From NCBI GenBank assembly GCA_009829735.1, contig CM020618.1:28124894-28188893 (forward strand): a stretch of 64,000 nucleotides of DNA. The letters run 5' to 3'. Each line of letters starts with the position of its first letter. The first letter of the stretch is position 1. Source of the stretch: Pyropia yezoensis (lineage: Eukaryota; Rhodophyta; Bangiophyceae; Bangiales; Bangiaceae). The notes below the pieces were generated by a model. The model worked only from the letters and a program-made list of their open reading frames with translations, did not search any database and had not been told where the DNA came from. Shown here piece after piece: positions 863 to 57,710 of the stretch. The translations under genes were made by a program, and so were the position numbers.

Positions 863-1018
863 ATGTGGTGTCCTCTGCCTGTGTGCGTGCGCGAGCTAGC
901 GGGAGACAACAGACGTTCACATGGTAGTTGCTCACCGTGTTCCTTCTTGTACACGGATTGCTTTTATGGCTGCCTGGCATGTCGCGCATGGTTTACTGTG
1001 ACAGTGCGCTTTTTCGAG

Positions 1019-15593: not shown

Positions 15594-15769
15594 TGGATAT
15601 CTTGACCGGCAGGTCCTCTGTCGTCGGTTGTGGCGGGGGGGTTGTGATGGTCAAGGGGTGGTCGGTGGCGGGGCCGACATGGGGCAGCGCTAATTGCGCT
15701 GCACCTCTGCCAAGTGGGACTTTGGACGGAGGGCCTGGGCAGCCGGCCCCCGAACAAAAAGCCGGCATG

Positions 15770-21250: not shown

Positions 21251-21613
21251 TGTAGCACAATTGGTATCCGCTGCACGTCCACTCTCAGGGGACACTCACC
21301 ACGGGAGATCGGCACCAACGTCACCGGGAGGCCAAGGTTGCTGTCCTTGGAGCGCAAGCCACGGGACCAAGATGGGAGCCCAAATGGGAGGGGTTTGTAG
21401 CTCTACCATGGCCGGCATTGGATTCGCCGCCGGCCCCCTCGTTATGTACCCTCGGAGACACTACTAACTACCCTCCACCCTAAGATGCAAGTCCCTCTGG
21501 TCATACGTAACTTACAGATACCGTGACCAGTAGGAAGTCTCAAATTAGATCTTAAGGGTTAGACATAGCCCCCCTATTATTAGGGTCACAATACGGCCGA
21601 CCATATTGCTACA
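21251..21613 (-). repeat. 3' LTR of element A
   Basis: 363 bp with TG...CA ends and 7-bp inverted termini (TGTAGCA/TGCTACA). Same orientation and length as 31337-31699. Confidence 0.95.
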
Positions 21614-21626
21614 TATCCCCCCCTTA
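21614..21626 (-). other. Polypurine tract of element A
   Basis: On the minus strand AAGGGGGGG then ATA directly before the LTR start. Equivalent tracts precede the LTRs at 42935 (B) and 58174-58185 (D). This fixes element orientation as minus. Confidence 0.8.
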
Positions 21627-22063
21627 GATTCGGCCCGTCCTCGGGTCGAGTTGCATTCGGGTGACCGAATGTAAGTGGGTCGCGTGACCGTTTACCAGTC
21701 GGGTGGGGCTTAGCGCCCTGTCGCGACAGACACCCCTTTTCGAGGTTGTCTGAGGGGGGTGCCCCCCTTTGTGTGGTACACACACGATCCGTTTTTCGGA
21801 CCGTTGAACTCGCGATGCGGGTTTCTGTTCACGACCCCCCTTTCCGAGGGGTGGTGCAAGCGGATCCGCCACCAGGTGTCTGGTGGTAGGGGGGCCCCTC
21901 TCGTGTGGACGATTGAGTGCGGGGCGATTGGGGGTGACCCCCCTGGATTGCCCCGTGTTGGGGGGGCGTGGCTCCGGTCCAGGTGCCTGGGTAAAGCGCC
22001 CTCGTAGCTCAGCTGGCGTGGGTCGTCCCCCGCTCCCGTATCGCTCGTGCTGAGCTGTGTGGT

Positions 22064-22084
22064 TATAAGCGCGGGTGCCCGCGC
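22064..22084 (+). promoter_or_regulatory. TATA-like box plus 16-nt GC palindrome upstream of the antisense ORF
   Basis: TATAA (22064-22068) is followed at once by GCGCGGGTGCCCGCGC (22069-22084), a 7-bp stem with a 2-nt loop. It lies 114 nt before the ATG of the antisense ORF. The same pair occurs in copy B at the same distance and in copy D in slightly altered form. This suggests a dedicated promoter or RNA hairpin for the plus-strand gene; function is inferred. Confidence 0.5.
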
Positions 22085-22177
22085 TTCCCTGGCTCGTCCG
22101 CGCGAGCGTTCCTCGTACCAGGTCGAGCCGGTTGCGGCTCTTTTGGCACGGGACGCCCCTGCTACCCCGGTTTCACC

Positions 22178-24546
22178 ATGTCGGACCCCCAGGTACCCGG
22201 GGGCGAGGACGACCTCCTGCTTGAGGAGGAGGAAGAGGTGATGGTGGACGACGTTCCCGTCTCTGCCACTGCTGCCGAGTGCTTCTTGGCGAGCTCGTCG
22301 GAGGACGAGGACGACCGGGTAACCGTTCGTGTGGCCCCGGAAGGCGCGCCGGGCGGCTTGTCGTCCGTGTGCAGCGGCACGACGGCTCCGTCAGGTGGCG
22401 GGCAACCGCGTGTAGCGGCTGCCTCTACCCCTACTCCTCCGGCGGCCCGGATGGCTCCTGTCGCCGGTGCCGGCGCGGCTTTACCTCAAGACGGTGTCGC
22501 CGGTGTGTCGGACGGTCGTGGCGGCACCCCGGCCGGGACGGCGGGTCAAGACTGCGCGGGTGCCCGCCCGGTTGGTGTGTCCGTGGCGGCGGGTGACGGG
22601 TGTACCCCTGCTGCTCCCGTGGTGCCCACGTCGGGCCCGGGTGGCGGCGATGCTCTGCCCGCGGTGCCGCGGGCGCTTGGTGGTCAAGAAGTGTCTACTC
22701 CAATGGCGATGGACTCCGGGAGTTACTCCGGGCGGGCGCCCGCCCTTCTTCTTCCTCCTCGGCCCCGTGCTCCTTCGGTGCCGGCACATCTGCCGGTGGG
22801 GCTCCCCCCGCGCCCCCGGTTCTTCCTGGTCCTGCCCGGGTTGCCCCGTTGGGTGGCGGCGTCGCCTTGGCGGCGGGTCAACCCGCCATGTCGATGTCCG
22901 ATTTGGTGGCTCGAGTTCGAGGCACGACTGTGCAAGAGTCCATGGAGTCTGCTGGGCGGATGCGGGTGGACTTCCACCAGCCGCGTCTCCCTGGAGAGAC
23001 CTCCCGGCGCGTCAAGGTGGACCCGAGTTGGGAGCGGGAGTTGGTGCGGCTGGTCAACCAGCCGAACGCGGTCCGAGTGGAGCATCATTGGATCCTGAGC
23101 CAGCCGGACGACCGGCATGCGCAGCTCTGGCGCACCCGGATTGGGCGGGGTGAGGTCTACCTCGACTCCGCCTTTGGGGTATGCGACTTGGTTGCCCCGG
23201 CGTTGCCGCGGGAGGTTGACTACACGGCTAGTGCTCGGGGGGTTGCGGCGGCGGCGGAGCCGGTGGCGTTTGGGGAGACGGTGGGTGATACCGGCCGGTA
23301 TCCCGGGTTTGAGTACTTCCCGGGGGTGTCCCCGTACCTGACGTTGACGGCTACGTACCCGCCCATGGCGGGGTTGAAGTCGGCGTCTAGCTGGCAACGC
23401 AACCATGGTGTCATGGCGGATGCGTTCCGCACCGATATAACGTGCGCGTTGCAGACCGGTAACGGTCAAGCGCCGGTGTACACTCCCGTGCGCCCGCCTC
23501 TGTGGCAGGAGGGGTGGGAACCCGCCCCTGCTTTCCGGTTTGACACCGGCTCCTGCATCCGATACTTCGGGAGTGTATTGGCCTCCCGGCCGATCCACCC
23601 GTTGCAGGGGACCTTCACCCTTGAGGTTACCCTCGGGCAGGCTTCCTCCTTCTTGCTGTCCGTCCGCCGGCAGGGGCGCCTGTTTCATCTTCCGACGGGT
23701 GTCCGTCGGCACATCGGGCAGCTGGGCGTGGACATGATCGCTGCTAAGATCGGGTTGGCCCGGGAGTTCGAGGCCCTGCTGGCCGTTCACGACGCCGTGA
23801 ACTGGGCTGGGGTGTTGGCCCTTCCTCCGTACCGGGACCCGCAGGCTGGGGCTACCCCCATGCCTCGTCACTCGTTGTGTATCCGGCGTACTCAGCCGGG
23901 TGAGCCAAATTGCCGTGGGTGGGCGTCTACCGAGGCTGCTCCTGACCTGGGTATTCCCATGGTTATCCATGACCCGCTTCAGATCCTCGCCCCGTTGTTC
24001 GGTAACCCGATACCGGCGGCGGTTGGCCGTCGTCCCCGAGAGTGGGGCTCTGCGGATGGGGAGCGTGAGGTGTCCCGTCGTCGGGCGGAGCCACGCCGGG
24101 TTTACGGTGGAGCCCCTTCACTGGGGTCCTACCGGGCCTCGTACCAGGCGCCACCGGCTCCGGTGGTAGCCGTGTCGGCTCCTGTGGCTCCTCTGGCTGC
24201 GCCAGTGTCACCTTCCGCCCCTGTCATGCGTGACGGGCGTCCCCGTCTATAGTATGAGGGCGTTGACGCCCTCATTGCCCGCGAGGTGCGGGAGGGTCTC
24301 CCTGTTAGCTCGGGGGATATCCCCCCAGGTGCTGCGCTTGTTGGGTCCGCGCGTTGCTTCGGTGGCGTGCTGGACCGCCTCCAGTCCGCTCTGGCGGACG
24401 TGGAGGCTGGCCGCAGCACCCTCGTCCAGCTATGCACCGAGGTAACTCGGGTGATTGACCGTCGTGAGATTGCCGACCGGTGGAGCATGGAGGTGTACGC
24501 GCTTACGCGTGAGTGGCCTCCCTCGGGCAGCGCGTCTTCCCACTGA
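22178..24546 (+). CDS. Antisense extra ORF (aORF) of element A; unknown protein, copy looks broken
   Basis: This region encodes, opposite to gag-pol, a protein of about 790 residues that is best seen in copy B (43499-45868). It begins MSDPQVPGG with an acidic block (EEEEEV, SSSEDEDD), then a Pro/Ala/Gly-rich stretch, a conserved core of about 350 residues with normal composition (blocks YPGFEYFPGVSPYLTL, FRFDTGSCIRYFGSVL, FHLPTGVRRHIGQLG), a Pro/Ala/Val linker, and a helical C-terminus (FGGVLDRLQSALADVEAGRS). No signal peptide, membrane segment or zinc knuckle is visible, so it does not look like an envelope. It lies between pol and the 3' LTR and converges on pol. I do not recognise the family. 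Copy A appears to carry one or two breaks. Confidence 0.75.
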
Positions 24547-24997
24547 GGAGTGCTATTGTTTGTGAGGGAGAGGGATCCGGTGACCCCTATTGTGGCCGGG
24601 TAGTAGTGAGTATGAACTCATCCCCCGCTGGAGCGTTTGCATGATACCGATGCCAGCCATTGGGGAGTACCCCGTCTGACTTAGTCGTGGCTTGCCTCGG
24701 TTCTTTCCCGTCTCCCCCAACCCATCCTGGTTGGTCCATACTCATGAAGGTCAACCTTCCTTGGCCCGTCACTTGCCCCATGGATGAAGGTTTACATTGG
24801 TGTAAGCCTCAGGTTACTTTGAAATTTTCCGAGTTAGTCATCTCCTTCAAGTAAACTTGTAAAAGTCAGTCGCATAGTTAGTTTGCCTAAGTCCGCTCCA
24901 ACTTAGTGAACCTAGGTCTTGCCGAATCCATGTGACACCCTACTTTGTAGTTATAAGCCTCACCCCCCAACAGCCGAAGTCGGTGTCGTTTGGGTTG
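24547..24997. other. 451-nt convergent spacer between aORF stop and pol stop
   Basis: Untranslated region shared by the converging aORF and pol. Its length is 451 nt here and in the three related copies (45869-46319, 48814-49264, 54844-55294), with substitutions but no net indel. A 64-codon minus-strand frame (24587-24781) is open in A, B and D and slightly shorter in C, but most differences among copies change the amino acid, so it is probably not coding. Likely holds 3' ends for both transcripts. Confidence 0.7.
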
Positions 24998-27900
24998 TTA
25001 CAGTAGGCGTCGTCGCCTCATGTAAGGCATGAGAAGTTGGCGGGGTATATTCGCCGCCTGTTCCCTGGTGGGTGAGTCGTATCCGACCCACATCACCTTG
25101 ACGTACCAGGGTCCTGGTAGGTCCGGGTCGGTGTGTCCGACCACGCTCTCTACTTGGTATGGAGTCCCATCCGGTCCCACCGGGTCATCTGACCGGTGGG
25201 TTGTAAGAGCTTCATGTAGCAACCCAGCCGGTACCGGCTGAGGCTGTTCCGGCTTCGGAGCAGGTGTCACATCATTGAGGTTGATGCGTTGTATCTCCGT
25301 ATCGGAGTGCAGGATTACAGAGTGATCATCTCTCTGTAAGGTCTGGTACGGTCCCTTGACCGGTTGCATAAGCTTGTTCCCGCGGAACTTCTGGTGTCTG
25401 ATGTAGACCCAGTCACCTGTTACCAGGGTTGCGTTGCGTACCCGTAGCCGGGCGTCAAAGTTGTTCTTATATCGAAGCTGTGTACGGTCAAGGGCACCCT
25501 TGAGCTTAGGTATCATCCACGATAGCTTGGCCAACCAAGCTAAGTGGATTCGTTCGGCCGGTCGGCCCTTCGGTATATCATACCGAGTGCATCTGCCCGG
25601 TGGCAGCGTCAGGTTACCGACGCCCATCGGCATGACCCATTCCAGGGGGGCAATGGTGGTATTCCGGTGGGGCCTGGCATTGTATGCCAGGGTCAAGACG
25701 GACAGAAGAATGTAAAACGTCTTCGTGTGCTCTGCCACATAGCATTGGATCATCTTGACGATGGTGCGGTTGAACCGCTCCACCTGCCCGTTGGACTGCG
25801 GGTGGTAGTCGGATGCCCGACGGGGTTCGATACCGAACATGCCCAGGACCTTAGTGCAGAATGCTGACGTAAGGTTTGCTCCGTTATCGGAGAGGAGTTG
25901 CTTCATTACTCCGTAAGCACTGATCCAGTGGTCAACCACTGCGTTCATGATCATGTAGGCCGTATCGTTCGGGACTGCTACTGCCCGTGACAGCTTCGTA
26001 AAGCGGTCCGACATGACCAGTAGGTAACTGTTCCCTTCTTCCGGCACCGGAAGCGGTCCGAGTATGTCGATAGCGACTTGCTCGTTGGGTCCATCCGGGG
26101 GGAACAGTTTCATAGGGGATGCCCGCCTATGAAGTCTCATACGATTTCGTGCACACGGGTGGCATCCCCGCACGTGGTCGATTACGTCGACGGCCATTGC
26201 TGGCCAGTAGAAGAACCTTCGCATTGCTGCGAACGTACGTGAACCCTCCGGGTGTCCGGCTGTGGGGTTCTCGTGTTCTCGTTCCATGACGGCTTGTCGT
26301 AGGGACATGGCAACCACGACATGATGCCGTCCATCGGCAGGTACCCGCCGATATATGAGTCCGTCCTCGTTCTCGGAGAAGATGCCGGCCGTGCCGCCCA
26401 GGAAGTTAGCACGATGGCGTTCACAGTCATCGTCATTGGCCTGTGCCTCGCGGAAGTCCCCGAGGGTCAATGGGCACGCAAGGTGTGCCATGATATGGTC
26501 AACCATACCTTGGGTAGCATTACCTACCATGCAAACCGGTACAACCGGGACGTCCTCGTCCACCTGTCGGGTATCCCCGCTTGGCGTATCGAGTCGCGAC
26601 AGCGCGTCCCCCAGATGATGGGTTGAGCCGGCCTTACATATGGTCCGGTAGTCGTGCTCGGCCATCTTCAGCCTCCACCGGGCTACCCGACCGTGGCTGT
26701 CGGAATCCTTGTCACCAAGGTTGAGAAGCCATCGTAAAGGTTCGTTGTCGGACCTTACGATGAACCTGGAGCCTTGCAGGTATGGCCGGAGCAGTTGCAC
26801 TGCCCATATGACTCCGAGGCACTCGCGCTCGGTGGCACTATAGTTACGCTCAGCCGGGTTGAGTGTCCGGCTGAAGTACCCTACCGGATGTAGGCCCGGG
26901 ATAGCATTATCGGTACCGATGATTGTCTCTACCTGTAACAGGGTGCACCCCACTTGGGTATCACAGGCGTCGACGTCGATGACAAAGGTCCCGCGTCTAT
27001 GCGGCAACGCAAGCACGGGTGGGGCTAGCAGAGCTTGCTTGAGCAGCTCGAATGCCTCTCTCTCGCTTGGCGAGGGAGGTTGGAGTACCTTTGGCAAGGC
27101 GCTGCTCGTCAGAACCGTTAGGAGTTTGGCTATACGAGCGAAGTCCTTGACGAACCGTCGGTATACGTTGCACATCCCCGGGAAGCTTTTCAGCTCGGTC
27201 TGGGTGGTTGGGTATCGCGCATCCTGGAGTGCCCGGGTATTAGCTTCGAGCACTCTCAGTTTACCTGGTGTGATCTGGTGACCCAGATACTCGACTGTCT
27301 GCTGGAAGAAGGCGCACTTCTTGAGGCGCAGGGTTACCCCGGCGTTCCGCCAGAGGGTGAGTACCTCATCGACATGTTGCACATGGTCATCCATGTTACG
27401 CGAGAAGACGATGACATCGTCCAAGTACACCAGGCAGTTACGCCACTTGACTCCCGACAGTATAATGTCGATGGCCCGCTGGAATGTGGCGGGGGCGTTG
27501 GACAATCCGAAAGGCATCCTTACGAACTCATACACGCCACTGTGACAGACGAACGCCGTCTTGGGGATATCCTCCTCCGCAACGGGAATCTGCCAGTACC
27601 CGGCATTGCAGTCGATAGTGGTAAACACTGTGGCCTCCCCCAGCGAGTCGATGCACTCGTCCATCCTTGGTAAAGGGTATGAGTCTTCCTTGGTAACCAA
27701 GTTGAGGCGTCGATAATCGATGCAAAACCGAGGGGTTTGATCCTTCTTCGGTACGATAACGACTGGGGCACCCCACTCGGACATCGAAGGTCGGATCACC
27801 TTAGCCTCGCTCATCCTCTTCACTTCTCCATCAACGATCTCTCGTTGCATAGGTCCCGCACGATGCGGATGCGACCGCGCTGGTCGAGCACCTGGTACCA

Positions 27901-29089
27901 GGTCTATACGGTGTTGAGTTGCCCCAATGGTACCCAGCGCCCCGCTGGTCCACAAGACGTCATGCTTACTTAGCATCCGTCGTACCCCTTCAGCTACCAA
28001 AGGGGGAAGGTGGTCGAGGACAGCCTCGGCCAGTGCCTTCAAGGCTTCTTGGTCCTTTGGCGGAATGTCCGCCGGAGCTGTTGATGGGTTCGGCTTCCCG
28101 TCATCGGGTTGCTGTCGCTCGGTGGTCTCGGCGACCGCCAGTACTTCTAGTGGTTCCACTTGACCTTCCTTGTCAGGGGTGAGGATGGCTCCTTCGAAAA
28201 GCTCGGCAATCCCGAGGATAGTTCCCTTCGGGAGGGTGACTGCCTTACGGCGATAGTTCGCCATCACGAGCAGTGATGACCCCCCCGCTCGGAGGTCTAC
28301 GATACCGTTGGCCATGGTCAACCCATGGCGCTTGTAGGTCCGTAGGTTGGACTGGACTCTGCAGATGCCTGCGAGGTCACAGTTAACCGCGAGGACGGTC
28401 TCCGATAGCGGCTCAAAGCGAGTCCGCTTGGCCAGCTGGAGTGTCTTCGGTTCTACGTTGGCGTATACCTCAGCCACGTTAACGTGGCTCCGTTGTAGCG
28501 TCAGGTGCCTGACGATAGCTGTCTGTCCTCTCTTAGTCCCGTCGGCCTCTTTCAGCTCGACGGTCCTCCGGCTCGGCCGGATTGCATCAACGTGAACGTT
28601 GATGAAGGTGCACCCCAGTATGCAGGGCACAGATAGAGTCTCACACACCAGGAAGTCAACTTCCGTCGTGAGCTCCCCGATGGTGACTCGCAGCGACATC
28701 GCTGCGGTCGTACGAATGAGACGACCATTCGCATCCTTGATCGTGGGTCCCCGAGCAACTCGGACTCGCGGGAGCCACTTGTCCGGAAAGGTATCCTTCC
28801 GGATCAGGTTAGGTCCAGCCCCTGTATCCTGTACAGGGTAATACGAGCCGGTCGACTGGGGGTCAACCCCCAGTGTGGCTGATACCTTGAAGTTCTCCAA
28901 GGTGAACAGTACGTGGCCTACACCGATATCCGGTGTAGCTCGGGCATCCTGAACAGGGCCCTTGTCTGGTTCCATGTGACGGGGCTTCCCGTCCTCTCCT
29001 CCCAACCCTGAAGGTTGGCCATCAATCCCCTGACGCCGTGTCGTCGGGGCCGGAAGGTGCACCCGGGGGTTGATGCGGCCTCGGCTCAA
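24998..29089 (-). CDS. pol: Pol polyprotein of element A (PR-RT-RH-IN-chromodomain-like)
   Basis: A single 1,363-codon frame without an obvious ATG start, so probably expressed from gag by a frameshift or read-through, as in many Ty3/gypsy elements. Retropepsin motif VQDTGAGPNLI near residue 85; reverse transcriptase with FCIDYRRLN near 453 and the catalytic YLDDVIVFS near 553; RNase H from about 700 (VIDVDACDTQVG); integrase with an H-H-C-C zinc module at about 955-1000 and the three acidic residues in IDILGPLP (~1005), SDNGANLTSAF (~1068) and QSNGQVERFNR (~1100). A GPY-type motif (KGPYQ) and a chromodomain-like tail (WYVKVMWVGYDSPT, ~1325) follow. The tail could steer integration to marked chromatin. 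It looks whole. Confidence 0.93.
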   Translation of the reverse strand: MSRGRINPRVHLPAPTTRRQGIDGQPSGLGGEDGKPRHMEPDKGPVQDARATPDIGVGHVLFTLENFKVSATLGVDPQSTGSYYPVQDTGAGPNLIRKDTFPDKWLPRVRVARGPTIKDANGRLIRTTAAMSLRVTIGELTTEVDFLVCETLSVPCILGCTFINVHVDAIRPSRRTVELKEADGTKRGQTAIVRHLTLQRSHVNVAEVYANVEPKTLQLAKRTRFEPLSETVLAVNCDLAGICRVQSNLRTYKRHGLTMANGIVDLRAGGSSLLVMANYRRKAVTLPKGTILGIAELFEGAILTPDKEGQVEPLEVLAVAETTERQQPDDGKPNPSTAPADIPPKDQEALKALAEAVLDHLPPLVAEGVRRMLSKHDVLWTSGALGTIGATQHRIDLVPGARPARSHPHRAGPMQREIVDGEVKRMSEAKVIRPSMSEWGAPVVIVPKKDQTPRFCIDYRRLNLVTKEDSYPLPRMDECIDSLGEATVFTTIDCNAGYWQIPVAEEDIPKTAFVCHSGVYEFVRMPFGLSNAPATFQRAIDIILSGVKWRNCLVYLDDVIVFSRNMDDHVQHVDEVLTLWRNAGVTLRLKKCAFFQQTVEYLGHQITPGKLRVLEANTRALQDARYPTTQTELKSFPGMCNVYRRFVKDFARIAKLLTVLTSSALPKVLQPPSPSEREAFELLKQALLAPPVLALPHRRGTFVIDVDACDTQVGCTLLQVETIIGTDNAIPGLHPVGYFSRTLNPAERNYSATERECLGVIWAVQLLRPYLQGSRFIVRSDNEPLRWLLNLGDKDSDSHGRVARWRLKMAEHDYRTICKAGSTHHLGDALSRLDTPSGDTRQVDEDVPVVPVCMVGNATQGMVDHIMAHLACPLTLGDFREAQANDDDCERHRANFLGGTAGIFSENEDGLIYRRVPADGRHHVVVAMSLRQAVMEREHENPTAGHPEGSRTFAAMRRFFYWPAMAVDVIDHVRGCHPCARNRMRLHRRASPMKLFPPDGPNEQVAIDILGPLPVPEEGNSYLLVMSDRFTKLSRAVAVPNDTAYMIMNAVVDHWISAYGVMKQLLSDNGANLTSAFCTKVLGMFGIEPRRASDYHPQSNGQVERFNRTIVKMIQCYVAEHTKTFYILLSVLTLAYNARPHRNTTIAPLEWVMPMGVGNLTLPPGRCTRYDIPKGRPAERIHLAWLAKLSWMIPKLKGALDRTQLRYKNNFDARLRVRNATLVTGDWVYIRHQKFRGNKLMQPVKGPYQTLQRDDHSVILHSDTEIQRINLNDVTPAPKPEQPQPVPAGLLHEALTTHRSDDPVGPDGTPYQVESVVGHTDPDLPGPWYVKVMWVGYDSPTREQAANIPRQLLMPYMRRRRLL

Positions 29090-29334
29090 CCGCGCTCTCC
29101 GTGGGGCTTTCCCCGCGGCAGTCCGGGGTGGCTTGCTAGGGTTACCCCAGCGACCCCGTGTCGTCCTTCCTCTTACTCGTTTCCCGTGCTCGGCTGGGTA
29201 CTATCTTCCGGGATATCCGGGAGAGGAGGTGCCTCCTCGACTGCCAGTACTCCTCCTGGAGCTTGCTGCCTACCCGGTGCCGGGCCTCTGGCGGTATACC
29301 CCCCAATGGATGCCTTGCGTTGCGCCGCTGCCCG

Positions 29335-31112
29335 TCAAGACTCCTCCGGGATGAGCGGGCATGAGGACACCCAGTGTTGGGGGTCTCCGCACAACATGCA
29401 TCCGTACGTGCCGGCCGTCCCGGGCGTCCGCGTCGGGTTGGCTCCATAGGTCCGGCTGCCTGCCTCGGGCGCCCGAGTGCCCGCCCCTTGGTAGGCCTTG
29501 GGTCCCGGTGCCAACCGGAACATGGACTCCCCCAGCCGGTTGGTTCTACCAGCGATGTGCGGAGGTGCCTCCGTACGCACTGCCCATGTCGGCAGGGGTT
29601 GGTGGGGGTTACCCGTAACCGGGGCATACCCCGTAGTCTGCACATACGGGACGCGCCGACCCGCTCCCTCGTTGACCTGGAACTGGGTCCCAGCCGGGGT
29701 GATGTACGCTACCGTACCATGCGCATCAATCACCGGCGTTGCCGGTAGCAACAGGTGGCCCTGTTGGTCGACTTGAGGTTCATTTTCACCCGTAGGGGTA
29801 TGTTTGGTCGCCACCAGTACTGGTGCGGCCTTACGTTCCACCCTCTCTTGCCTCGGTACCGGGGTAAGACTTGGCTTGCCTCCCTCACCCTTGGGCTTCA
29901 GGACCAAGGCGCATTCCGGGTGCAATCAACCCCCGGTCGCCAAACACAAGCGAAAAGCAAGCGAAAATCCCCCCCCACACAGATGCCAATCCCCGAACAA
30001 AACCCAGTGGGAAAAAGGGGAAAGACACGAAAACACGCAGTGAAAACAAATACGAAACAAATGGCCACAATGGCCAGTAAGGCCACCTCCACCGGCCCAA
30101 TCCGCCTCCCTGGGTGGGACCAATCAGGATCCCGGGTGTGTCGCCACAGTCCCGAGTAACTGACAGAGGGGGGCCCGGAAAGAGAAGGGCTCCACGTAGG
30201 ATAGCCCGCCGGGTCCCAAGTCACCTCCCCAAGGGCCCGCCTGTCCCCAAAGGCTCAGAACGCCACAGATCGGTCCTCCAAACGATAACGTTCAGGAGTC
30301 AGTACCGACCTGGAGACTTCGTTGACAATCTCCGTGTCCGCGTCCTGGATATTCAGTCGCTTGGCCAATTGATGAGTAAGCTCATCGGACTCCATCCGCT
30401 TCAGCAAGCTCGCAGTAACCTGCGCTGTCATCGCTTGCACCAGTGACGCTGGAACTTCCGGCGTCGGCGCCTCGGGTACCCGAGTTGCCTGGCTTCCGTC
30501 GTCGAGGGGGTAATGGGAGACGGTACCCTCTATTCCGACCGCCGACTATGTTCCGGCTTAAGTGCCCGCCGGACCATGTCCGCGGAGCCCGCTCTGGGTG
30601 CTCCGAGCGTAGCGCTCCGCATGGCTACGTTCCAACTCAGCCGACGGGTCGGATCCATAACCCGCCGTGTCCGGGGGTTGTCCAGGAGTAGCAACACCGG
30701 GGTTGACCCTGGTGGATTCCGAAGGTAGTCCGGCCGGTTCGAACCGTACCGGTGTGGGAGGAACACGACCGGGTACCGTCGTATGGCGTGCTGACATCAG
30801 CACAGCCATTGCGTCCTCCGTACGCTCCTGACGTGCGTCGAGCCCGGTGAACTGGGCCTCGATGCGAGCCAATGATGCCATCAGGGAGTCCCCTGGCGAA
30901 GGTGGCGGCGGCGTGCGGTCGGCAGAGGACAGTTGCGCCGGTCCGCTGCCCCTATCCGTCCGTGCCGTGCCAAACGTCGATCCGGCACCTGGGAGCATCG
31001 ACTTCTCAATGTTGTCGATCGGGTTACCGATCCCGGTTCCCGGGTTCAGCTCCGGGGTCGGCGTCGACGCCGATCCGTCATCTTGAACGTTCCCCGTCTC
31101 TTGGGTTAACAT
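29335..31112 (-). pseudogene. gag: Gag region of element A, broken
   Basis: Begins with ATG at 31112 (MLTQETGNVQDDG) shortly after the 5' LTR and primer-binding site. The first part is Pro/Ser/Thr-rich with a helical segment (SLMASLARIEAQFTGLDARQERTEDA). The distal part contains a CCHC zinc knuckle, CMLCGDPQHWVSSC (C-x2-C-x4-H-x4-C, near 29370-29410), typical of nucleocapsid and immediately upstream of pol. The region does not read as one frame and appears to carry a few breaks. Confidence 0.75.
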
Positions 31113-31320
31113 ACTCACAATCAGTCAACCGACCTAACAATCACCACGAAAAGAGAGCGAGGGGGTAGTTGGGAAAGAGCAACCGTAGATCGCAGTCAAA
31201 CGCAACCACTCAAAACAATCAAACAGATCGCAGCACCACGAGTACAACAAAAGGACTGGATCCTTATCCGTGTGCCAGGGCCAAAGACGGCGTCACCACA
31301 AGGGTGACGGAAACCCGTCC

Positions 31321-31336: not shown

Positions 31337-31699
31337 TGTAGCACAATAGGTATCCGCTGCTCGTCCACTCTCAGGGAACACTCACCACGGGGGATCGGCA
31401 CCTACGTCACCGGGAGGCCAAGGTTGCTGTCCTTGAAGCGCAAGCCACGGGACCAAGATGGGAGCCCAAATGGGAGGGGTTTGTTGTTCTACCATGGCCG
31501 GCGGTGGATTCGCCGCCGGCCCCCTCGTTATAAACCCTCGGAGACACTACTAACTACCCTCCACCCCAAGATGCAAGTCCCTCTGGTCATACGTAACCTA
31601 AAGATACCGTGACCAGTACGAACTCTCGAATTGAAAGCCAAGGATTAGAAGTAGCCCCCCTAATATCAGGGTCACAATACGGCCGAGCATATTGCTACA
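31337..31699 (-). repeat. 5' LTR of element A
   Basis: 363 bp, matching 21251-21613. A TTTATAA sequence (minus strand, around 31528-31534) is the likely core promoter; the left LTR differs at this site. Confidence 0.95.
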
Positions 31700-32466
31700 A
31701 CCCCCATCAAACGGCACGGGACGCAACGATGACAGAAAGCTCTGCTACGAGAAAACGTCTGTACCTCCGAGCTTATGAGACTCTCAGGAGTCCATCGGTA
31801 CAGACTGAGGGTTCCTGGGAGAAAAGTGCTATGGCTTTCATTTTGGGGTCAGACAGATACAGTCGCCACCTTGCCTCGTAGTCGCTTCTTGTGGCCGGGA
31901 CGCCGCGAGATGCCGCCGGTGACAGATGACAACGGCCTAACTCGTCGATGCCCCGTGGAATTACAGTTAGGCCGAGCCGCGTTTCTATCAGAAGAATTCA
32001 CTGCGAACACGAACTCATTTAATCACCCTCGCCGCTGGGTCACCACGGGGCTGCCTGGCGGTCTCGTCACCTGCCGCTGCCGTGTATGTCAGCTGGGCCT
32101 CGGTGGCACGTTATTTCCGGCAGCTTTTAAGCAGCTGGGGCTGCCTGCTCGATACTTCAAGATACCGTTGAAGTCCGGAGCCAGTGTGTTGGAAATACAC
32201 TTGATTTCGCATTACACTTGCAAGAGTGTAGATATGAAGACTTTCTGATTTCGCTAAGTGTATCGCTTACACACTTGATAAGATACACTAGTGGTACCCT
32301 TGGGCCGATACTCTTGCACAGCGCTGATCGGGTGCCATGCAGACACGAGGTTCAGGCAATAGAATCTGACCTATCCACTAGGCGCGTATACATGGGGGGC
32401 AGTGCGGGGCGGGTCTGCTGCCGCCGCCGCGACCGACGTCGCTGCCGCAGCCACCGCTTTCTGTTT

Positions 32467-43384: not shown

Positions 43385-43405
43385 TATAAGCGCGGGTGCC
43401 CGCGC
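43385..43405 (+). promoter_or_regulatory. TATA-like box and 16-nt palindrome upstream of aORF (copy B)
   Basis: TATAA at 43385-43389 followed by GCGCGGGTGCCCGCGC at 43390-43405, 114 nt before the ATG, as in element A. Confidence 0.5.
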
Positions 43406-43498
43406 TTCCCTGGCTCGTCCGCGCGAGCGTTCCTCGTACCAGGTCGAGCCGGTTGCGGCTCTTTTGGCACGGGACGCCCCTGCTACCCCGGTTTCACC

Positions 43499-45868
43499 AT
43501 GTCGGACCCCCAGGTACCCGGGGGCGAGGACGACCTCCTGCTTGAGGAGGAGGAAGAGGTGATGGTGGACGACGTTCCCGTCTCTGCCACTGCTGCCGAG
43601 TGCTTCTTGGCGAGCTCGTCGGAGGACGAGGACGACCGGGTAACCGTTCGTGTGGCCCCGGATGGAGCGCCGGGCGGTTTGTCGTCCGTGTGCAGCGGCA
43701 CGACGGCTCCGTCAGGTGGCGGGCAACCGCGTGTAGCGGCTGCCTCTACCCCTACTCCTCCGGCGGCCCGGATGGCTCCTATCGCCGGTGCCGGCGCGAT
43801 TCTTCCTCAAGACGGCGTCGCCGGCGTGGCGGATGGTCGTGGCCGCACCCCAGCCGAGCCGGTGGGTCAAGACGGTGCGGGTGCCCGCCCGGTTGGTGTG
43901 TCCGCGGCGGCGGGTAGCGAGTCTACCCCTGCTGCTCCCGTGGTGCCCACGTCGGGCCCGGGTGGCGGCGATGCTCTGCCCGCGGTGCCGCGGACGCTTG
44001 GTGGTCAAGAAGTGTCTACCCCGATGGCAGTGGACTCCGGGAGCTACTCCGGGCGGGCGCCCGCCCTTCTTCTTCCTCCTCGGCCCCGTGCACCTTCGGC
44101 ACCGGCCCATCTGCCGGTGGGGCATCCCCCGGCGCCCCCGATTCTTCCTGGTCCTGCCCGGGTTGCCCCGTTGGGTGGCGGCGTCGCCGTGGCGGCGGGT
44201 CAACCCGCCATGTCGATGTCCGACTTGGTGGCTCGGGTTGGAGGCATGACTGTGCAAGAGTCCATGGAGTCTGCTGGGCGGATGCGGGTGGACTTCCACC
44301 AGCCGCGTCTCCCTGGAGAGACCTCCCGGCGCGTCAAGGTGGACCCGAGTTGGGAGCGGGAGTTGGTGCGGCTGGTCAACCAGCCGAACGCGGTCCGAGT
44401 GGAGCATCATTGGATCCTGAGCCAGCCGGACGACCGGCATGCGCAGCTCTGGCGCACCCGGATTGGGCGGGGTGAGGTCTACCTCGACTCCGCCTTTGGG
44501 GTATGCGACTTGGTTGCCCCGGCGTTGCCGCGGGAGGTTGACTACACGGCTAGTGCTCGGGGGATTGCGGCGGCGGCGGAGCCGGTGGCGTTTGGGGAGA
44601 CGGTGGGTGATACCGGCCGGTATCCCGGGTTTGAGTACTTCCCGGGGGTGTCCCCGTACCTGACGTTGACGGCTACGTACCCGCCCATGGCGGGGTTGAA
44701 GTCGGCGTCTAGCTGGCAACGCAACCATGGTGTCATGGCGGATGCGTTCCGCACCGATATAACGTGCGCGTTGCAGACCGGTAACGGTCAAGCGCCGGTG
44801 TACACTCCCGTGCGCCCGCCTCTGTGGCAGGAGGGGTGGGAACCCGCCCCTGCTTTCCGGTTTGACACCGGCTCCTGCATCCGATACTTCGGGAGTGTAT
44901 TGGCCTCCCGGCCGATCCACCCGTTGCAGGGGACCTTCACCCTTGAGGTTACCCTCGGGCAGGCTTCCTCCTTCTTGCTGTCCGTCCGCCGGCAGGGGCG
45001 CCTGTTTCATCTTCCGACGGGTGTCCGTCGGCACATCGGGCAGCTGGGCGTGGACATGATCGCTGCTAAGATCGGGTTGGCCCGGGAGTTCGAGGCCCTG
45101 CTGGCCGTTCACGACGCCGTGAACTGGGCTGGGGTGTTGGCCCTTCCTCCGTACCGGGACCCGCAGGCTGGGGCTACCCCCATGCCTCGTCACTCGTTGT
45201 GTATCCGGCGTACTCAGCCGGGTGAGCCCAATTGCCATGGGTGGGCGTCCACCGAGGCTGTTGCTGACCTGGGTATTCCCATGGTTATCCATGACCCTCT
45301 TCAGGTCCTTGCCCCGTGGTTCGGTAACCCGATACCGGCGGCGGTTGGCCGTCGTCCCCGAGAGTGGGGCTCTGCGGGTGGGGAGCGTGACGTGTCCCGT
45401 CGTCGGTCCGAGCCCCGCCGGGTTTACGGTGGGGCCCCTTCAGATAGGTCCTACCGGGCCTCGTATCAGGTGCCACCGGCTCCGGTAGTAGCCGTGTCGG
45501 CTCCTGTGACTCCTCTGGCTGCGCCAGTGTCACCTCCCGCCCCTGTCATGCGTGACGGGGGTCCCCGTCTATGGTATGAGGGCGTTGACGCCCTTGTTGC
45601 CCGCGCAATGCGGGAGGGTCTCTCTGTTAGCTGGGGGGATATCCCCCCAGGTGCTACGCTGGTTGGGTCAGCGCGTTGCTTCGGTGGCGTGCTTGACCGC
45701 CTCCAGACAGCTCTGGAGGACGTGGAGGCTGGCCGCAGCACCCTCGTCCAGCTATGCACCGAGGTAACTCGGGTGATTGACCGTCGTGAGATTGCCGACC
45801 GGTGGAGCACGAAGGTATACGCGCTTACGCGTGAGTGGCCTCCCTCGGGCAGTGGGTCTACCCACTGA
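43499..45868 (+). CDS. Antisense extra ORF, copy B (open throughout)
   Basis: The clearest copy: 789 residues from the ATG at 43499 (MSDPQVPGGEDD); the frame is also open upstream to 43265 but the shared ATG in copy A supports 43499. Layout: acidic block ~10-50; Pro/Ala/Gly-rich region ~50-235; conserved core ~238-590 beginning MSMSDLVARV; Pro/Ala/Val linker ~650-690; helical tail ~690-789 with heptad-like LDRLQTALEDVEAGRS. No recognised domain. Much more similar to copy A in the core than in the Pro-rich part, the pattern expected if the core was constrained. Opposite in strand to pol of the same element. Possible roles (regulator, nucleic-acid or particle protein) are guesses. Confidence 0.8.
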   Translation: MSDPQVPGGEDDLLLEEEEEVMVDDVPVSATAAECFLASSSEDEDDRVTVRVAPDGAPGGLSSVCSGTTAPSGGGQPRVAAASTPTPPAARMAPIAGAGAILPQDGVAGVADGRGRTPAEPVGQDGAGARPVGVSAAAGSESTPAAPVVPTSGPGGGDALPAVPRTLGGQEVSTPMAVDSGSYSGRAPALLLPPRPRAPSAPAHLPVGHPPAPPILPGPARVAPLGGGVAVAAGQPAMSMSDLVARVGGMTVQESMESAGRMRVDFHQPRLPGETSRRVKVDPSWERELVRLVNQPNAVRVEHHWILSQPDDRHAQLWRTRIGRGEVYLDSAFGVCDLVAPALPREVDYTASARGIAAAAEPVAFGETVGDTGRYPGFEYFPGVSPYLTLTATYPPMAGLKSASSWQRNHGVMADAFRTDITCALQTGNGQAPVYTPVRPPLWQEGWEPAPAFRFDTGSCIRYFGSVLASRPIHPLQGTFTLEVTLGQASSFLLSVRRQGRLFHLPTGVRRHIGQLGVDMIAAKIGLAREFEALLAVHDAVNWAGVLALPPYRDPQAGATPMPRHSLCIRRTQPGEPNCHGWASTEAVADLGIPMVIHDPLQVLAPWFGNPIPAAVGRRPREWGSAGGERDVSRRRSEPRRVYGGAPSDRSYRASYQVPPAPVVAVSAPVTPLAAPVSPPAPVMRDGGPRLWYEGVDALVARAMREGLSVSWGDIPPGATLVGSARCFGGVLDRLQTALEDVEAGRSTLVQLCTEVTRVIDRREIADRWSTKVYALTREWPPSGSGSTH

Positions 45869-48388: not shown

Positions 48389-51300
48389 AGGGGTCCTACC
48401 GGGCCTCATATCAGGCGCCACCGGCTCCGGTGGTAGCTGTGTTGGCTCCGGTGGCTCCTCTGGCTGCGCTAGTGTCACCTCCCGCCCCTGTCATGCGTGA
48501 CGGGGGTCCCCGTCTATGGTATGAGGGCGTTGACGCCCTTGTTGCCCGCGCAATGCGGGAGGGTCTCTCTGTTAGCTGGGGGGATATCCCCCCAGGTGCT
48601 ACGCTGGTTGGGTCAGCGCGTTGCTTCGGTGGCGTGCTTGACCGCCTCCAGTCCGCTCTGGCGGACCTGGAGGCTGGCCGCAGCACCCTCGTCCAGCTAT
48701 GCACCGAGGTAACTCGGGTGATTGACCGTCGCGAGATTGCCGACCGGTGGAGCATGGAGGTGTACGCGTTTACGCGTGAGTGGCCTCCCTCGGGCAGCGG
48801 GTCTACCCACTGAGGAGTGCTATTGTTTGTGAGGGAGAGGGCCCCGGTAACCCTTATGGTGGCCGGGTAGTAGTGAGTATGAACTCATCCCCCGCTGGGG
48901 CGTTTGCATGATACCAATGCCTGCCATTGGGGAGTACCCCGTCTAACTTAGTCGTGGCTTGCCTCGGTTCTTTCCGGCCTCCCCCAACCCATCCTGGCTG
49001 GTTAATACTCATGAAGGTCAACCTTCCGTAGTCCGTCACTTGCCCGATGGATGAGGCTTTCCTTTGGTGTAAGCCTCAGGTTACTTCGAAATTATCGGAG
49101 TTAGTTATCTCCTTCAAGTAAACTTGTAAAAGTCAGTCGCTTACTTAGTTTGCCTAAGTCCGCTCCAACTTAATGAACCTAAGTCTTGCCGAATCCATGT
49201 GACACCCTTCTTAGTAGGTATAAGCCTCACCCCCCAACAGCCGAAGTCGGTGTCGGTTGGGTTGTTACAGTAGGCGTCGTCGCCTCATGTAAGGCATGAG
49301 GAGGTGGCGGGGTATATTCGCCGCCTGTTCCCAGGTGGGTGAGTCGTATCCGACCCACATCACCTTGACGTACCAGGGTCTTGGTAGGTCCGGGTCGGTG
49401 TGTCCGACCACGCTCTCTACTTGGTATGGAATCCCATCCGGTCCCACCGGGTCATCTGACCGGTGGGTTGTAAGAGCTTCATGTAGCAACCCAGCCGGTA
49501 CCGGCTGAGGCTGTTCCGGCTTCGGAGCAGGTGTCACATCGTTGAGGTTGATGCGTTGTTTCTCCGTATCGGAGTGCAGTATGACAGAGTGATCATCTCT
49601 GTGTGAGATCTGGTACGGTCCATTGACCGGTTGCATAAGCTTTTTCCCTCGGAACTTCTGGTGTCTGATGTAGACCCAGTCACCTGTTACCAGGGTAGCG
49701 TTGCGCACCCGTAGTCGGGCGTCGAAGTTCTTCTTGTATCAAAGTTGCGTTCTATCAAGGGCAGCCTTGAGCTTAGGAATCATCCACGATAGCTTGGCCA
49801 ACCAAGCTAAGTGGATGCGTTCGCCCGGTCGGCCCTTCAGTGTATCATACCGAGTGCACCTGCCGGGTGGCAGCGTCAGGTTACCGACCCCTAGTGGCAT
49901 GACCCACTCCAGTGGGCCGATGTTTGTACTCCGATGTGGCCTGGCATTGTATGCCAGGGTGAGTACGGACAGAAGCCTGTCCCACATCTTTGTGTGCTCG
50001 GCCACATAGCACTGTAGCATCTTGACGATTGTGCGGTTGAACCGCTCCACCTGCCCGTTGGACTGCGGGTGGTAGTCGGATGCCCGACGGGGTTCGATAC
50101 CGAACATGCCCAGGACCTTAGTGCAGAATGCTGACGTAAGGTTTGCTCCGTTATCGGAGAGGAGTTGCTTCATTACTCCGTATGCACTGATCCAGTGGTC
50201 AACCACTGCGTTCATGATGGTATATGCCGTATCATTCGGGATGGCTGCCGCTCGTGACAGCTTAGTGAATCGGTCTGACATGACTAGGATGTACCTGTTC
50301 CCTTCTTCCGTTACCGGAAGTGGCCCGACTATGTCGATAGCGACCTGCTCGTTAGGCCCATCCGGTGGGAATAGTTTCATGGCAGACGCCTGCCTATGTA
50401 GACTCATGCGGTTACGTGCACAGAGGTTGCATCCCCTTACGTTGTCAACCATGTCGACGGCCATTGCTGGCCAGTAGAAGAACCTTCGCATTGCTGCGAA
50501 CACACGTGAACCCTTCGGGTGTCCAGCTGTAGAGTTCTCGTGTTCTCGTTCCATGACGGCTTGCCGTAAGGACACGGGAACCACGACTTGATGTCGTCCA
50601 TCGGCGGGTGCCCGCCGGTATATGAGTCCGTCTTCATTCTCGGAGAAGATGCCGGCCGTACCGGCCAGGAGGTTAGCGCGACGGCGTCTACAGTCGTCTT
50701 CATTGGCTTGTGCCTCGTGGAAGTCCGCGAGAGTCAGTGGGCATGCTCGGTGTGCCATGGTATGGTCAACCATACCTTGGGTGGCGTTACCCACCATGCA
50801 CACCGGTACCACCGGGATGTCCTTGTCCACCGGGCGGGTATCCCCGCTCGGGGTGTCGAGTCGAGACAGCGCGTCTCCGAGGTGGTGGGTTGACCCAGCC
50901 TTATACTTAGTGCGGTAGTCGTGCTCGGCCATCTTCAGCCTCCATCGGGCTAGCCTCCCATGGCTATCGGAATCCTTGTCACCCAGGTTGAGGAGCCATC
51001 GTAAAGGTTCGTGGTCGGACCTCACGATGAACCTGGAGCCCTCCAGGTATGGCCGGAGCAGTTGCACTGCCCATATAACCCCGAGGCACTCACGTTCGGT
51101 GGCACTATAGTTATGCTCAGCCGGGTTGAGTGTCCGGCTGAAGTACCCTACCGGACGTAGGTCCGGGATAACGTTATCGGAACCGATAAACGTCTCTCCC
51201 TGTAACAGGGTGCATCCCACTTGGGTATCGCATGCATCGACATCGATGACGAGGGTACCCCGTCTGTGCGGTAACGCAAGGACGGGTGGGGATAGTAGGG

Positions 51301-55294: not shown

Positions 55295-57700
55295 TCAGTG
55301 GGAAGACGCGCTGCCCGAGGGAGGCCACTCACGCGTAAGCGCGTACACCTCCATGCTCCACCGGTCGGCAATCTCACGACGGTCAATCACCCGAGTTACC
55401 TCGGTGCATAGCTGGACGAGGGTGCTGCGGCCAGCCTCCAGGTCCGCCAGAGCGGACTGGAGGCGGTCAAGCACGCCACCAAAGCAACGCGAGGAACCGA
55501 CCAGCGCAGCACCTGGGGGGATATCCCCCCAGCTGACAGAAAGACCCTCCCGCATCTCGCGGGCAATGAGGGCGTCAACGCCCTCATACCATAGACGGGG
55601 ACCCCCGTCACGCATGAAAGGGGCGGGAGGTGACACTAGCGCAGCCAGAGGAGCCCCCGGAGCCAACACAGCTACCACCGGAGCCGGTGGCGCCTGATAT
55701 GAGGCCCGGTAGGACCCCAGTGAAGGGGCTCCACCGTAAACCCGGCGTGGCTCCGCCCGACGACGGGACACGTCACGCTCCCCACCCGCAGAGCCCCACT
55801 CTCGGGGACGACGGCCAACCGCCGCCGGTATCGGGTTACCGAACCACAGGGCGAGGATCTGAAGCGGGTCATGGATAACCATGGGAATACCCAGGTCAGG
55901 AACAGCCTCGGTGGACGCCCACGCACGGCAATTGGGCTCACCCGGCTGAGTACGCCGGATACGCAACGAGTGACGAGGCAAGGGGGAAGCCCCAGCCTGC
56001 GGGTCCCGGTACGGGGGAAGGGCCAACACCCCAGCCCAGTTCACGGCATTGTGAACGGCCAGCAGGGCCTCGAACTCCCGGGCCAACCCGGTCTTGGCGG
56101 CTATCAGGTCCACGCCCAGCTGCCCGATATGCCGACGGACACCCGTCGGAAGCTGGAACAGGCGCCCCTGCCGGCGGACGGACAGCAAGAAGCAGGAAGC
56201 CTGCCCGAGGGTAACCTCAAGGGTGAAGGTACCCTGCAACGGGTGGACCGGCCGGGAGGCCAATACACTCCCGAAGTATCGGAGACAGGAGCCGGTGTCA
56301 AACCGGAAAGCAGGGGCGGGTTCCCAACCCTCCTGCCACAGAGGAGGGCGCACGGGAGTGTACACCGGCGCGCGACCGTTACCGGTCTGCATCGCGCACG
56401 TTATATCGGTGCGGAACGCATCCGCCATGACACCATGGTTGCGTCGCCAGCTAGACGCCGACTTCAACCCCGCCATGGGCGGGTACGTAGCCGTCAACGT
56501 CAGGTACGGGGACACCCCCGGGAAGTACTCAAACCCGGGATACCGGCCGGTATCACCCACCGTCTCCCCAAACGCCACCGGCTCCGCCGCCGCCGCAATC
56601 CCCCGAGCACTAGCCGTGTAGTCAACCTCCCGCGGCAACGCGGGGGCAACCAAGTCGCATACCCCGAAGGCGGAGTCGAGGTAGACCTCACCCCGCCCAA
56701 TCCGGGTGCGCCAGAGCTGCGCATGCCGGTCGTCCGGCTGACTCAGGACCCAATGTTGTTCCACCCGGACCGCGTTCGGCTGGTTGACCAGCCGCACCAA
56801 CTCCCGCTCCCAACTCAAGTCCACCTCGACGTGCCGGGAGGACTCTTCACGGTGACGTGGCTGGTGGAAGTCCACCCGCATCCGCCCAGCGGAGTCCATA
56901 GGCTCCTGCACAATTAGGCCTCGAACCCGACCCACCGAGTCAGACATCGACATGGCGGGTTGACCCGCCGCCAAGGCGACGCCGCCACCCGACTGGGCAA
57001 CCCGGGCGGGACCAGGAAGAATCGGGGGCGCCGGGAGAAGCCCCACCAGCAGATGGGGCGGTGCCGTAGGCGCACGGGGCCGAGGAGGAAGACGAAGGGC
57101 GGGCGCCCGCCCGGAGTAGCTTCGGGAGTCCACCGCCATCGGGGAAGACACTTCTTGACCACCAATCGCCCGCGGCACCGCGGGCCGAGCATGGCCGCCA
57201 CCCGGGAACGACGTGGGCACCACGGGGATGGAGGGAGCAGACCCGATACCCGCCCCCACGGACACACCACCACCCGGGCGGGCACCCGCGCCGTCTTGAC
57301 CCGCCGTCCCGGCTGGGGTGCCGCCACGACCGCCCGGCACACCGGCTGCGCCGTCATGAGGTAAAGCCGCGCCTGCACCGGCGGCAGGAGCCATCCGGGT
57401 CGCCGGAGGAGTAGAAGTAGGGGCAGCCGCTACGTGCAGTTGACCGCCACCCGACGGAGCCGTCGTGGCGCTGCACACGGACGACAATCCGCCCGATGCG
57501 CCTTCCGGGGCCACACGGACGGTTACCCGGTCGCCTTCGTCCTCCGACGAGCTCGCCAAGATGCACTCGGCAGCGGTGGCAGAGACGGGACCGTCATGGT
57601 GGAGCCGGTGTAGCAGGGGCGCCCGGTGCCAAAAAAGCCGCAGCCGGCTCGACCCGGTACAAAGAACGCTCGCGCGGACGAGCCAGGGAAGCGCGGACAC
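55295..57700 (-). CDS. Antisense extra ORF, copy D (long open frame, divergent N-terminus)
   Basis: Open for 801 codons on the minus strand, opposite to pol of element D. The core (YPGFEYFPGVSPYLTL, FRFDTGSCLRYFGSVL, QLPTGVRRHIGQLG) and the helical tail (FGGVLDRLQSALADLEAGRS) are retained. The first ~40 residues differ from copies A and B, and the acidic EEEEE block is not recognisable. The initiation codon is uncertain. Its persistence as an open frame in an otherwise 5'-truncated fossil argues the copy is not very old. Confidence 0.75.
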   Translation of the reverse strand: MSALPWLVRASVLCTGSSRLRLFWHRAPLLHRLHHDGPVSATAAECILASSSEDEGDRVTVRVAPEGASGGLSSVCSATTAPSGGGQLHVAAAPTSTPPATRMAPAAGAGAALPHDGAAGVPGGRGGTPAGTAGQDGAGARPGGGVSVGAGIGSAPSIPVVPTSFPGGGHARPAVPRAIGGQEVSSPMAVDSRSYSGRAPALRLPPRPRAPTAPPHLLVGLLPAPPILPGPARVAQSGGGVALAAGQPAMSMSDSVGRVRGLIVQEPMDSAGRMRVDFHQPRHREESSRHVEVDLSWERELVRLVNQPNAVRVEQHWVLSQPDDRHAQLWRTRIGRGEVYLDSAFGVCDLVAPALPREVDYTASARGIAAAAEPVAFGETVGDTGRYPGFEYFPGVSPYLTLTATYPPMAGLKSASSWRRNHGVMADAFRTDITCAMQTGNGRAPVYTPVRPPLWQEGWEPAPAFRFDTGSCLRYFGSVLASRPVHPLQGTFTLEVTLGQASCFLLSVRRQGRLFQLPTGVRRHIGQLGVDLIAAKTGLAREFEALLAVHNAVNWAGVLALPPYRDPQAGASPLPRHSLRIRRTQPGEPNCRAWASTEAVPDLGIPMVIHDPLQILALWFGNPIPAAVGRRPREWGSAGGERDVSRRRAEPRRVYGGAPSLGSYRASYQAPPAPVVAVLAPGAPLAALVSPPAPFMRDGGPRLWYEGVDALIAREMREGLSVSWGDIPPGAALVGSSRCFGGVLDRLQSALADLEAGRSTLVQLCTEVTRVIDRREIADRWSMEVYALTREWPPSGSASSH

Positions 57701-57710
57701 CCGCGCTTAT
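57690..57710 (-). promoter_or_regulatory. TATA-like box and palindrome upstream of aORF (copy D)
   Basis: Minus-strand TATAA (57710-57706) followed by GCGCGGGTGTCCGCGC (57705-57690). One base differs from A and B, shortening the stem to 6 bp with a 4-nt loop. Confidence 0.45.

What the first reader, a model, noticed from the sequence alone, without database searches (positions are those of the whole stretch)
22178..24546. A large, unrecognised ORF encoded antisense to gag-pol in a Ty3/gypsy element, kept in four related copies
Seen: element A (LTRs, PPT, PBS and target duplication all give minus orientation) carries a ~790-residue ORF on the plus strand between pol and the 3' LTR. Relatives B (43499-45868) and D (55295-57700) keep it as a long open frame, always opposite to their own pol, and C keeps its 3' end (48389-48813). 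Known: some plant Ty3/gypsy elements carry antisense extra ORFs (e.g. gene23 of Grande). Inference: this protein, with an acidic N-terminus, a ~350-residue conserved core and a helical C-terminus, appears unrelated to anything I recognise and may be a new retroelement-borne gene.
Basis: partly seen in the sequence, partly recalled or inferred. Interest (0 to 1): 0.88.

Follow-up and report, generated by a model that had tools for sequence, protein, structure and literature searches.

The report
Selected antisense gene in nori retrotransposons
A very common mobile element in the nori seaweed genome carries, back to front behind its replication genes, a large extra protein gene that natural selection has kept working and that matches no protein family we could search.

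Summary
The window is from the red alga Pyropia yezoensis (contig sizes match published scaffolds). The antisense ORF is real, but copy A, the one cited, is broken (frameshift and internal stop). Only B is full length in the window; C is a 3' fragment; D is open without its start. Related subfamilies share about 45-78% of residues with B. The gene was opposite to pol in all 44 loci where pol was in view. Core dN/dS is 0.24-0.31 between subfamilies. In a small sample chosen without regard to the protein it is 0.30-0.35, with 6 of 7 cores open, so selection acts on the protein, less strongly than on pol's integrase end (0.09-0.12). A 35-bp palindrome-containing block lies 104-113 bp before the ATG, even in subfamilies sharing about half their residues; 834 copies lie in the genome. 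Homologues were found only in Pyropia vietnamensis and unnamed contigs; no Pfam or convincing PDB match; structure prediction failed. Best reading: a protein-coding accessory gene, probably with its own promoter, perhaps a nuclear regulator serving the element. The architecture is known (Grande, Retand, Boty); the protein family looks new.

The parts
22178..24546 (+). Antisense gene, copy A (broken: frameshift near 22.82 kb, stop ending at 24252)
43499..45868 (+). Antisense gene, copy B, open, 789 aa; core = residues 278-609
48392..48810 (+). Antisense gene, copy C, 3' fragment (left edge approximate)
55295..57706 (-). Antisense gene, copy D, open but without its ATG and acidic N-terminus
22065..22099 (+). 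35-bp promoter-like block, copy A, 113 bp before the ATG
43386..43420 (+). 35-bp promoter-like block, copy B, 113 bp before the ATG
21614..21960 (.). Leader of A next to the 3' LTR (includes the polypurine tract); the first ~300 bp are 90-98% identical between B and the sf2/sf3 examples
24998..29200 (-). pol of element A: PR, RT, RNase H, integrase, chromodomain-like C-terminus (last point inconclusive)
29142..31124 (-). gag remnant of element A (CCHC knuckle near 29.4 kb, Pfam match below its cut-off)
21251..21613 (-). 3' LTR of element A
31337..31699 (-). 5' LTR of element A; ACCCC duplicated at 21246-21250 and 31700-31704
24950..25000 (-). About 50-bp block just after the pol stop, conserved between subfamilies while the rest of the inter-ORF stretch is less so

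Best explanation
The ORF is a true protein-coding accessory gene of one lineage of Ty3/gypsy elements in Bangiales red algae, read antisense to gag-pol. Shown: the reading frame, its orientation, purifying selection, conservation to Pyropia vietnamensis, and a conserved 35-bp block at a nearly fixed short distance before the ATG. Inferred: that this block is its own core promoter; that the protein enters the nucleus (acidic N-terminus, basic 610-689 linker of pI 11.3, no membrane span); and that it acts in trans to help its element, most likely by regulating element transcription or countering silencing, as proposed for gene23 of Grande and the TRP28 proteins of Retand. Because gag-pol and this gene converge, a full-length genomic RNA would overlap its mRNA, so the gene may also set the balance between the two.
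For: Between subfamilies the core dN/dS is 0.31, 0.25, 0.24 with codon-bootstrap intervals 0.16-0.41 (21 open copies). Protein-blind control: of 8 places picked by the 35-bp block alone, 7 held the core, 6 of these without stop or indel; dN/dS 0.35 (0.26-0.46), 0.30 (0.19-0.50) and 0.30 (0.23-0.39). Other frames: four have 4-13 stops in every copy; the fifth (-0) has 3 stops in all sf2 and 2 in 14 of 15 sf3 copies and dN/dS 0.8-1.0. Opposite to pol in 44 of 44 loci with pol in view, 42 distinct places; 12 further loci had no pol in range. The block: at most 3 mismatches in 43 of 59 loci held, 5-6 in two divergent ones, 104-113 bp before the ATG; 834 copies genome-wide at up to 2 mismatches, reversed control 0. 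P. vietnamensis homologues at 33-67% over aligned parts. Charge pattern and hydropathy.
Against: No transcript or protein was tested. Nuclear location and regulation rest on charge pattern and analogy only. Both structure predictions failed (mean pLDDT 31.9 and 31.1). The 21 open copies were picked for being open and mostly for a high protein score, so 'no stop in frame +0' is partly built in, and the low value within sf3 (0.15) is not borne out by the blind sample (0.30). Three sf2 copies give 1.59 in the core (13 versus 3.3 changes) and 0.90 over the gene; sf1 core 0.42; the N-terminus within sf3 is 0.75 (interval includes 1), the linker 1.1-1.2 in three of five comparisons, and the C-terminal interval reaches 1 in three of five. 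Frame -1 also shows 0.41-0.50, though with 7-13 stops. The block shows no clear RNA folding signal (z -0.85 and -1.70), and at least three loci that hold the leader stretch lack it (L024, L052, L053).
Confidence: 0.6

Rival explanations
1. The antisense transcript matters, not the protein: an antisense RNA limits copy number or makes double-stranded RNA, and the frame is a by-product.
For: Convergent layout; the review PMC7264820 raises this for other elements.
Against: Protein-level constraint in the core, dN/dS 0.24-0.35; amino-acid conservation to P. vietnamensis.
Confidence: 0.1
2. A host gene captured by the element, still doing its cellular job.
For: Large single-frame gene; capture is known for other LTR elements (PMC7264820).
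Against: Three protein searches gave 7, 10 and 17 hits, all Pyropia vietnamensis or unnamed ENA/Logan contigs, each scoring only the ~8,000 candidates sharing most words; none in viral or prokaryote contigs. A distant single-copy host gene could be hidden below hundreds of element copies.
Confidence: 0.12
3. A structural or particle protein (extra capsid, envelope-like or movement-like protein) or an enzyme rather than a regulator.
For: Size and conserved core; invariant Cys/His/Asp and an FDTG motif in the alignment could mean an enzyme or metal site.
Against: gag is on the sense strand, with 143 scored copies of a 268-residue upstream part at 99-100% identity (my reading of it as capsid has no Pfam support). 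No similarity of the core to gag or pol detected, a weak test with few sequences. No membrane span (highest 19-residue hydropathy 1.29). No Pfam match.
Confidence: 0.15
4. Chance open frame in GC-rich DNA, a shadow of a sense gene.
For: The opposite strand also has a 575-codon frame in B (43712-45439).
Against: Over the core the matching opposite-strand frame has stops in sf2 and most sf3 copies and dN/dS 0.8-1.0.
Confidence: 0.02

Closest known systems
gene23 of maize Grande (and RIRE2 relatives)
   Same: Antisense gene between pol and 3' LTR of a Ty3/gypsy element; promoter in its own upstream region; protein nuclear (PMC7264820)
   Different: Flowering plants; no sequence fetched here to compare; location and transcript of the nori gene untested
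Retand antisense ORFs with TRP28 domain (PF04195)
   Same: Position and orientation; typical of a whole lineage; proposed regulator (PMC11963269, passages)
   Different: No PF04195 match; Retand is a non-chromovirus lineage, whereas this pol ends in a chromodomain-like stretch (inconclusive)
brtn of Boty elements (Botrytis, Sclerotinia)
   Same: Antisense additional gene in an LTR element outside plants (PMC7264820; PMC8365987 passages)
   Different: Fungal; sequence not compared here
HBZ of HTLV-1
   Same: Antisense gene at the 3' end, nuclear (PMC11963269 passage); acidic activation region is recalled
   Different: HTLV's antisense promoter is in the 3' LTR (PMC7264820); its bZIP (recalled) has no match here

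Membership tests
Ty3/gypsy LTR retrotransposon | pol in the order protease, RT, RNase H, integrase | tested here: met
   Pfam order along P0003, (protease match below its curated cut-off)
Ty3/gypsy LTR retrotransposon | LTRs, target duplication, polypurine tract, primer site | tested here: met
   Element A; tRNA of the primer site not identified
Chromovirus branch | Chromodomain after integrase | tested here: inconclusive
   Weak match to cpSRP43, E 0.46; no Pfam Chromo match at E up to 1
Antisense additional ORF class (aORF-3R) | Antisense frame between pol and 3' LTR | tested here: met
   44 of 44 loci with pol in view are antisense; LTR on the far side read in the window and in L018, L019
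Antisense additional ORF class (aORF-3R) | Present in most copies with protein-level conservation | tested here: inconclusive
   Conservation met. The share of all copies was not counted: 834 leader blocks; on contig C3 10 of 40 scored gag places had a listed antisense gene within 12 kb, both lists incomplete
Antisense additional ORF class (aORF-3R) | Antisense transcript from its own promoter | not testable with these tools
   Only a conserved block before the ATG is shown
Retand TRP28 proteins | PF04195 domain | tested here: not met
   No Pfam family matched
Grande gene23 protein | Sequence homology | not tested
   No gene23 sequence fetched
HBZ-type antisense regulators | bZIP domain | tested here: not met
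   No Pfam match at E up to 1
Envelope-like third ORF | Sense orientation with transmembrane span | tested here: not met

The most novel reading that the evidence does not exclude
The antisense protein is the element's own transcriptional switch. It dimerises through its helical C-terminus, binds the 9-bp-arm palindrome (AAGCGCGGG TG CCCGCGCTT) in its own promoter, and by autoregulation decides between antisense (accessory) and sense (genomic RNA) transcription, a repressor-like switch inside an LTR retrotransposon.
Probability: 0.1. Interest if true: 0.85.

Novelty: new variant of a known kind. Interest (0 to 1): 0.6.

Why it matters
According to the review PMC7264820, the function of antisense extra genes of LTR retrotransposons is not known. 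Here one is found in a red alga, as a protein without detectable relatives in the same position, under clear though not extreme protein-level selection, with 834 copies of its leader block in a 107-Mb genome. It makes testable why separate element lineages place a gene antisense behind pol, and the 35-bp block gives a precise place to look for its transcript start.

Tried and rejected
Structure prediction of residues 250-789 and of the core failed, so no fold search was run. Pfam gave nothing for the gene; PDB gave none or weak rows at E 0.11-2.4 discarded as chance; PHROGs gave two weak one-member matches (E 0.038 and 0.19), also discarded. Viral and prokaryote contig scans: 97 and 145 pattern stretches, none confirmed. 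The opposite-strand 575-codon frame in B was considered as the true gene and rejected. A capsid role was considered because copy L040 lacks the gag middle part; set aside because 143 scored gag copies have it. RNA folding of the block is not clearly better than shuffles. The FDTG motif looked aspartic-protease-like from memory; no support found. The 20-bp palindrome occurs 393 times exactly; its places were not sorted by context. Rows dropped: L002 (same as window B) and D from the codon analysis; L020 and L035 (no ATG at the start) were kept; L060 (no core found) left out of the ratios, L066 (one stop, one inserted and one deleted base) kept.

Full report
What the window is. The window is C1:28124894-28188893 of a 107.5-Mb assembly whose three large contigs, 43,592,136, 34,331,705 and 29,385,039 bases, match the 43.6, 34.3 and 29.4 Mb scaffolds of Pyropia yezoensis (PMC7423979, passages). 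That paper says 48.0% of the genome is predicted to be repeats, with LTR elements predominant.

The element. Element A is a Ty3/gypsy element in minus orientation with 363-bp LTRs (blast alignment 91.7%, so an old insertion), a 5-bp duplication, a polypurine tract and a primer-site candidate. Its pol has the order PR-RT-RH-IN and ends in a stretch that looks like a chromodomain to me; the test was weak (E 0.46). gag, with a CCHC knuckle (Pfam match below its cut-off), is in the sense direction. B, C and D are truncated copies.

The antisense gene in the window. B is open for 789 codons. A, the copy cited, has a frameshift and an in-frame stop. D is open but its first 34 codons are out of register. 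C is a 3' fragment.

Genome-wide. A DNA search scored 40 places, 39 of them at 93-96% to copy A besides itself. A protein search with a P. vietnamensis homologue reached other subfamilies (67 scored of 2,176 candidates). I call the window type sf1; sf2 and sf3 share about 60% and 77% of residues with B, and divergent types (L041-L044, L049, L051) about 40-60% in their aligned pieces. In one search, 92 of the 126 scored matches (the best of 1,930 candidates, so a favourable sample) lay in open frames of at least 770 codons (count). In one search, 23 of 40 copies (22 of 39 distinct) had at least 760 residues aligned in one open frame, among them two without the ATG and D. Of 56 loci, 44 showed pol, all 44 opposite to the antisense gene (42 distinct places); 12 had no pol in range. 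On contig C3, 10 of 40 scored gag places had a listed antisense gene within 12 kb, all on the opposite strand, seven of them at 6.4 kb; none on the same strand (both lists incomplete).

Coding test. 21 open copies (3 sf1, 3 sf2, 15 sf3), chosen for being open and mostly for a high protein score, were compared over the 332-codon core. dN/dS is 0.31 (sf1-sf2), 0.25 (sf1-sf3), 0.24 (sf2-sf3) and 0.15 within sf3. Of the other frames, four carry 4-13 stops in every copy, and the fifth has stops in sf2, most sf3 and one sf1 copy. To remove the bias of choice I took 8 places from the list of exact 35-bp blocks without regard to the protein and fetched the stretch where the core should lie. Seven held it; six of seven had no stop or indel; dN/dS was 0.35 within sf1-like, 0.30 within sf3-like and 0.30 between them, intervals 0.19-0.50. 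So purifying selection is confirmed, but the 0.15 was flattered by the choice of copies. The pol C-terminal stretch gives 0.11, 0.12 and 0.09 between subfamilies and 0.34, 0.16, 0.17 within them, so the antisense core is less constrained than pol. Against: three sf2 copies give 1.59 in the core (few changes) and 0.90 over the whole gene; sf1 copies 0.42 in the core, the N-terminal 232 residues 0.46-0.75, the linker 0.3-1.2, the C-terminus 0.31-0.52 with intervals reaching 1 in three of five comparisons. sf3 is a mosaic: its N-terminus is nearer sf2 (dS 0.24 against 0.43), its core and C-terminus nearer sf1 (0.19 and 0.12 against 0.77 and 0.75), as expected from template switching.

Leader. Between B and the sf2 and sf3 examples, the LTR is about 85-100% alike and the next ~300 bp 90-98%; the following stretch up to the ATG falls to about 36-80%. 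sf2 and sf3 are close to each other there, so the contrast is sf1 against the two. Inside that stretch a 35-bp block, ATAAGCGCGGGTGCCCGCGCTTCCCTGGCTCGTCC, stands out. Of the 59 loci then held, 43 have it with at most 3 mismatches and L049 and L051 with 6 and 5, 104-113 bp before the ATG where the ATG is present; 14 lack it, most of which do not hold that part of the element, but L024, L052 and L053 do. The best match in one shuffled copy of each listed locus has 13-16 mismatches. With up to 2 mismatches it occurs 834 times in the genome, reversed control 0. In all but four of these 45 loci (L006, L020, L021, L035) the first ATG after it is that of the gene. I read it as a core promoter; this is inference. 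RNA folding does not clearly exceed shuffles.

Protein. Residues 1-60 are acidic (pI 4.1), 61-232 are 53% Pro+Ala+Gly, 278-609 form the conserved core, 610-689 are basic (pI 11.3); no membrane span. About residues 720-779 are modelled as helices with pLDDT 56-83; the rest of the model is unusable. A short acidic motif near DLLxEE recurs in divergent subfamilies and in P. vietnamensis. No Pfam match, no PHROGs or PDB match worth the name. Protein searches found 7, 10 and 17 hits, all P. vietnamensis 'hypothetical proteins' or unnamed ENA/Logan contigs; only about 8,000 candidates were scored each time, so absence elsewhere is not proven. No likeness of the core to gag or pol was detected.

Not every Ty3 element here has it: element E (58647 onward, LTRs 97.6% alike) has a different pol (28-62% identical pieces), and nothing like the gene was found in L057, which holds its 3' stretch.

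In print. Antisense extra ORFs are reviewed in PMC7264820 (parts 1-2 of 3 read); Retand in PMC11963269 (passages); Boty brtn in PMC8365987 (passages). Searches that could show a red algal case (listings only) showed none by title or start of abstract; most subscription papers are not held.

Verdict. A real, selected antisense gene: near certain. Own promoter: likely. Nuclear regulator of the element: the best single guess, unproven.

Noticed in passing
window 24950-25000 (minus): About 50 bp just after the pol stop are conserved even in L041, while the rest of the inter-ORF stretch is less so; it contains a G-run that might be a second polypurine tract.
   Followed up: partly
G000:C2:9880067-9892399 (L014-L016, L030): Four antisense-gene copies at 3489-bp spacing; three of them without pol in range.
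   Followed up: no
G000:C1:23856704, 23867457, 23878210: Leader blocks at exactly 10,753-bp spacing, suggesting a tandem array of whole elements.
   Followed up: no
window 58647-64000 and L057:1-2517: Element E: a different Ty3/gypsy element with 680-bp LTRs 97.6% alike and no antisense gene found.
   Followed up: partly
window 39580-41163 (minus): 528-codon frame with a sub-threshold match to CxC4, a cysteine cluster associated with KDZ transposases (E 6.8e-4).
   Followed up: no
window 13354-16104 (minus) and 851-2452 (plus): Frames of 917 and 534 codons without Pfam or PDB match.
   Followed up: partly
L040:8029-9000 (minus): An sf3 copy whose gag lacks a middle stretch present in L059 and in the 143 scored gag copies.
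   Followed up: partly
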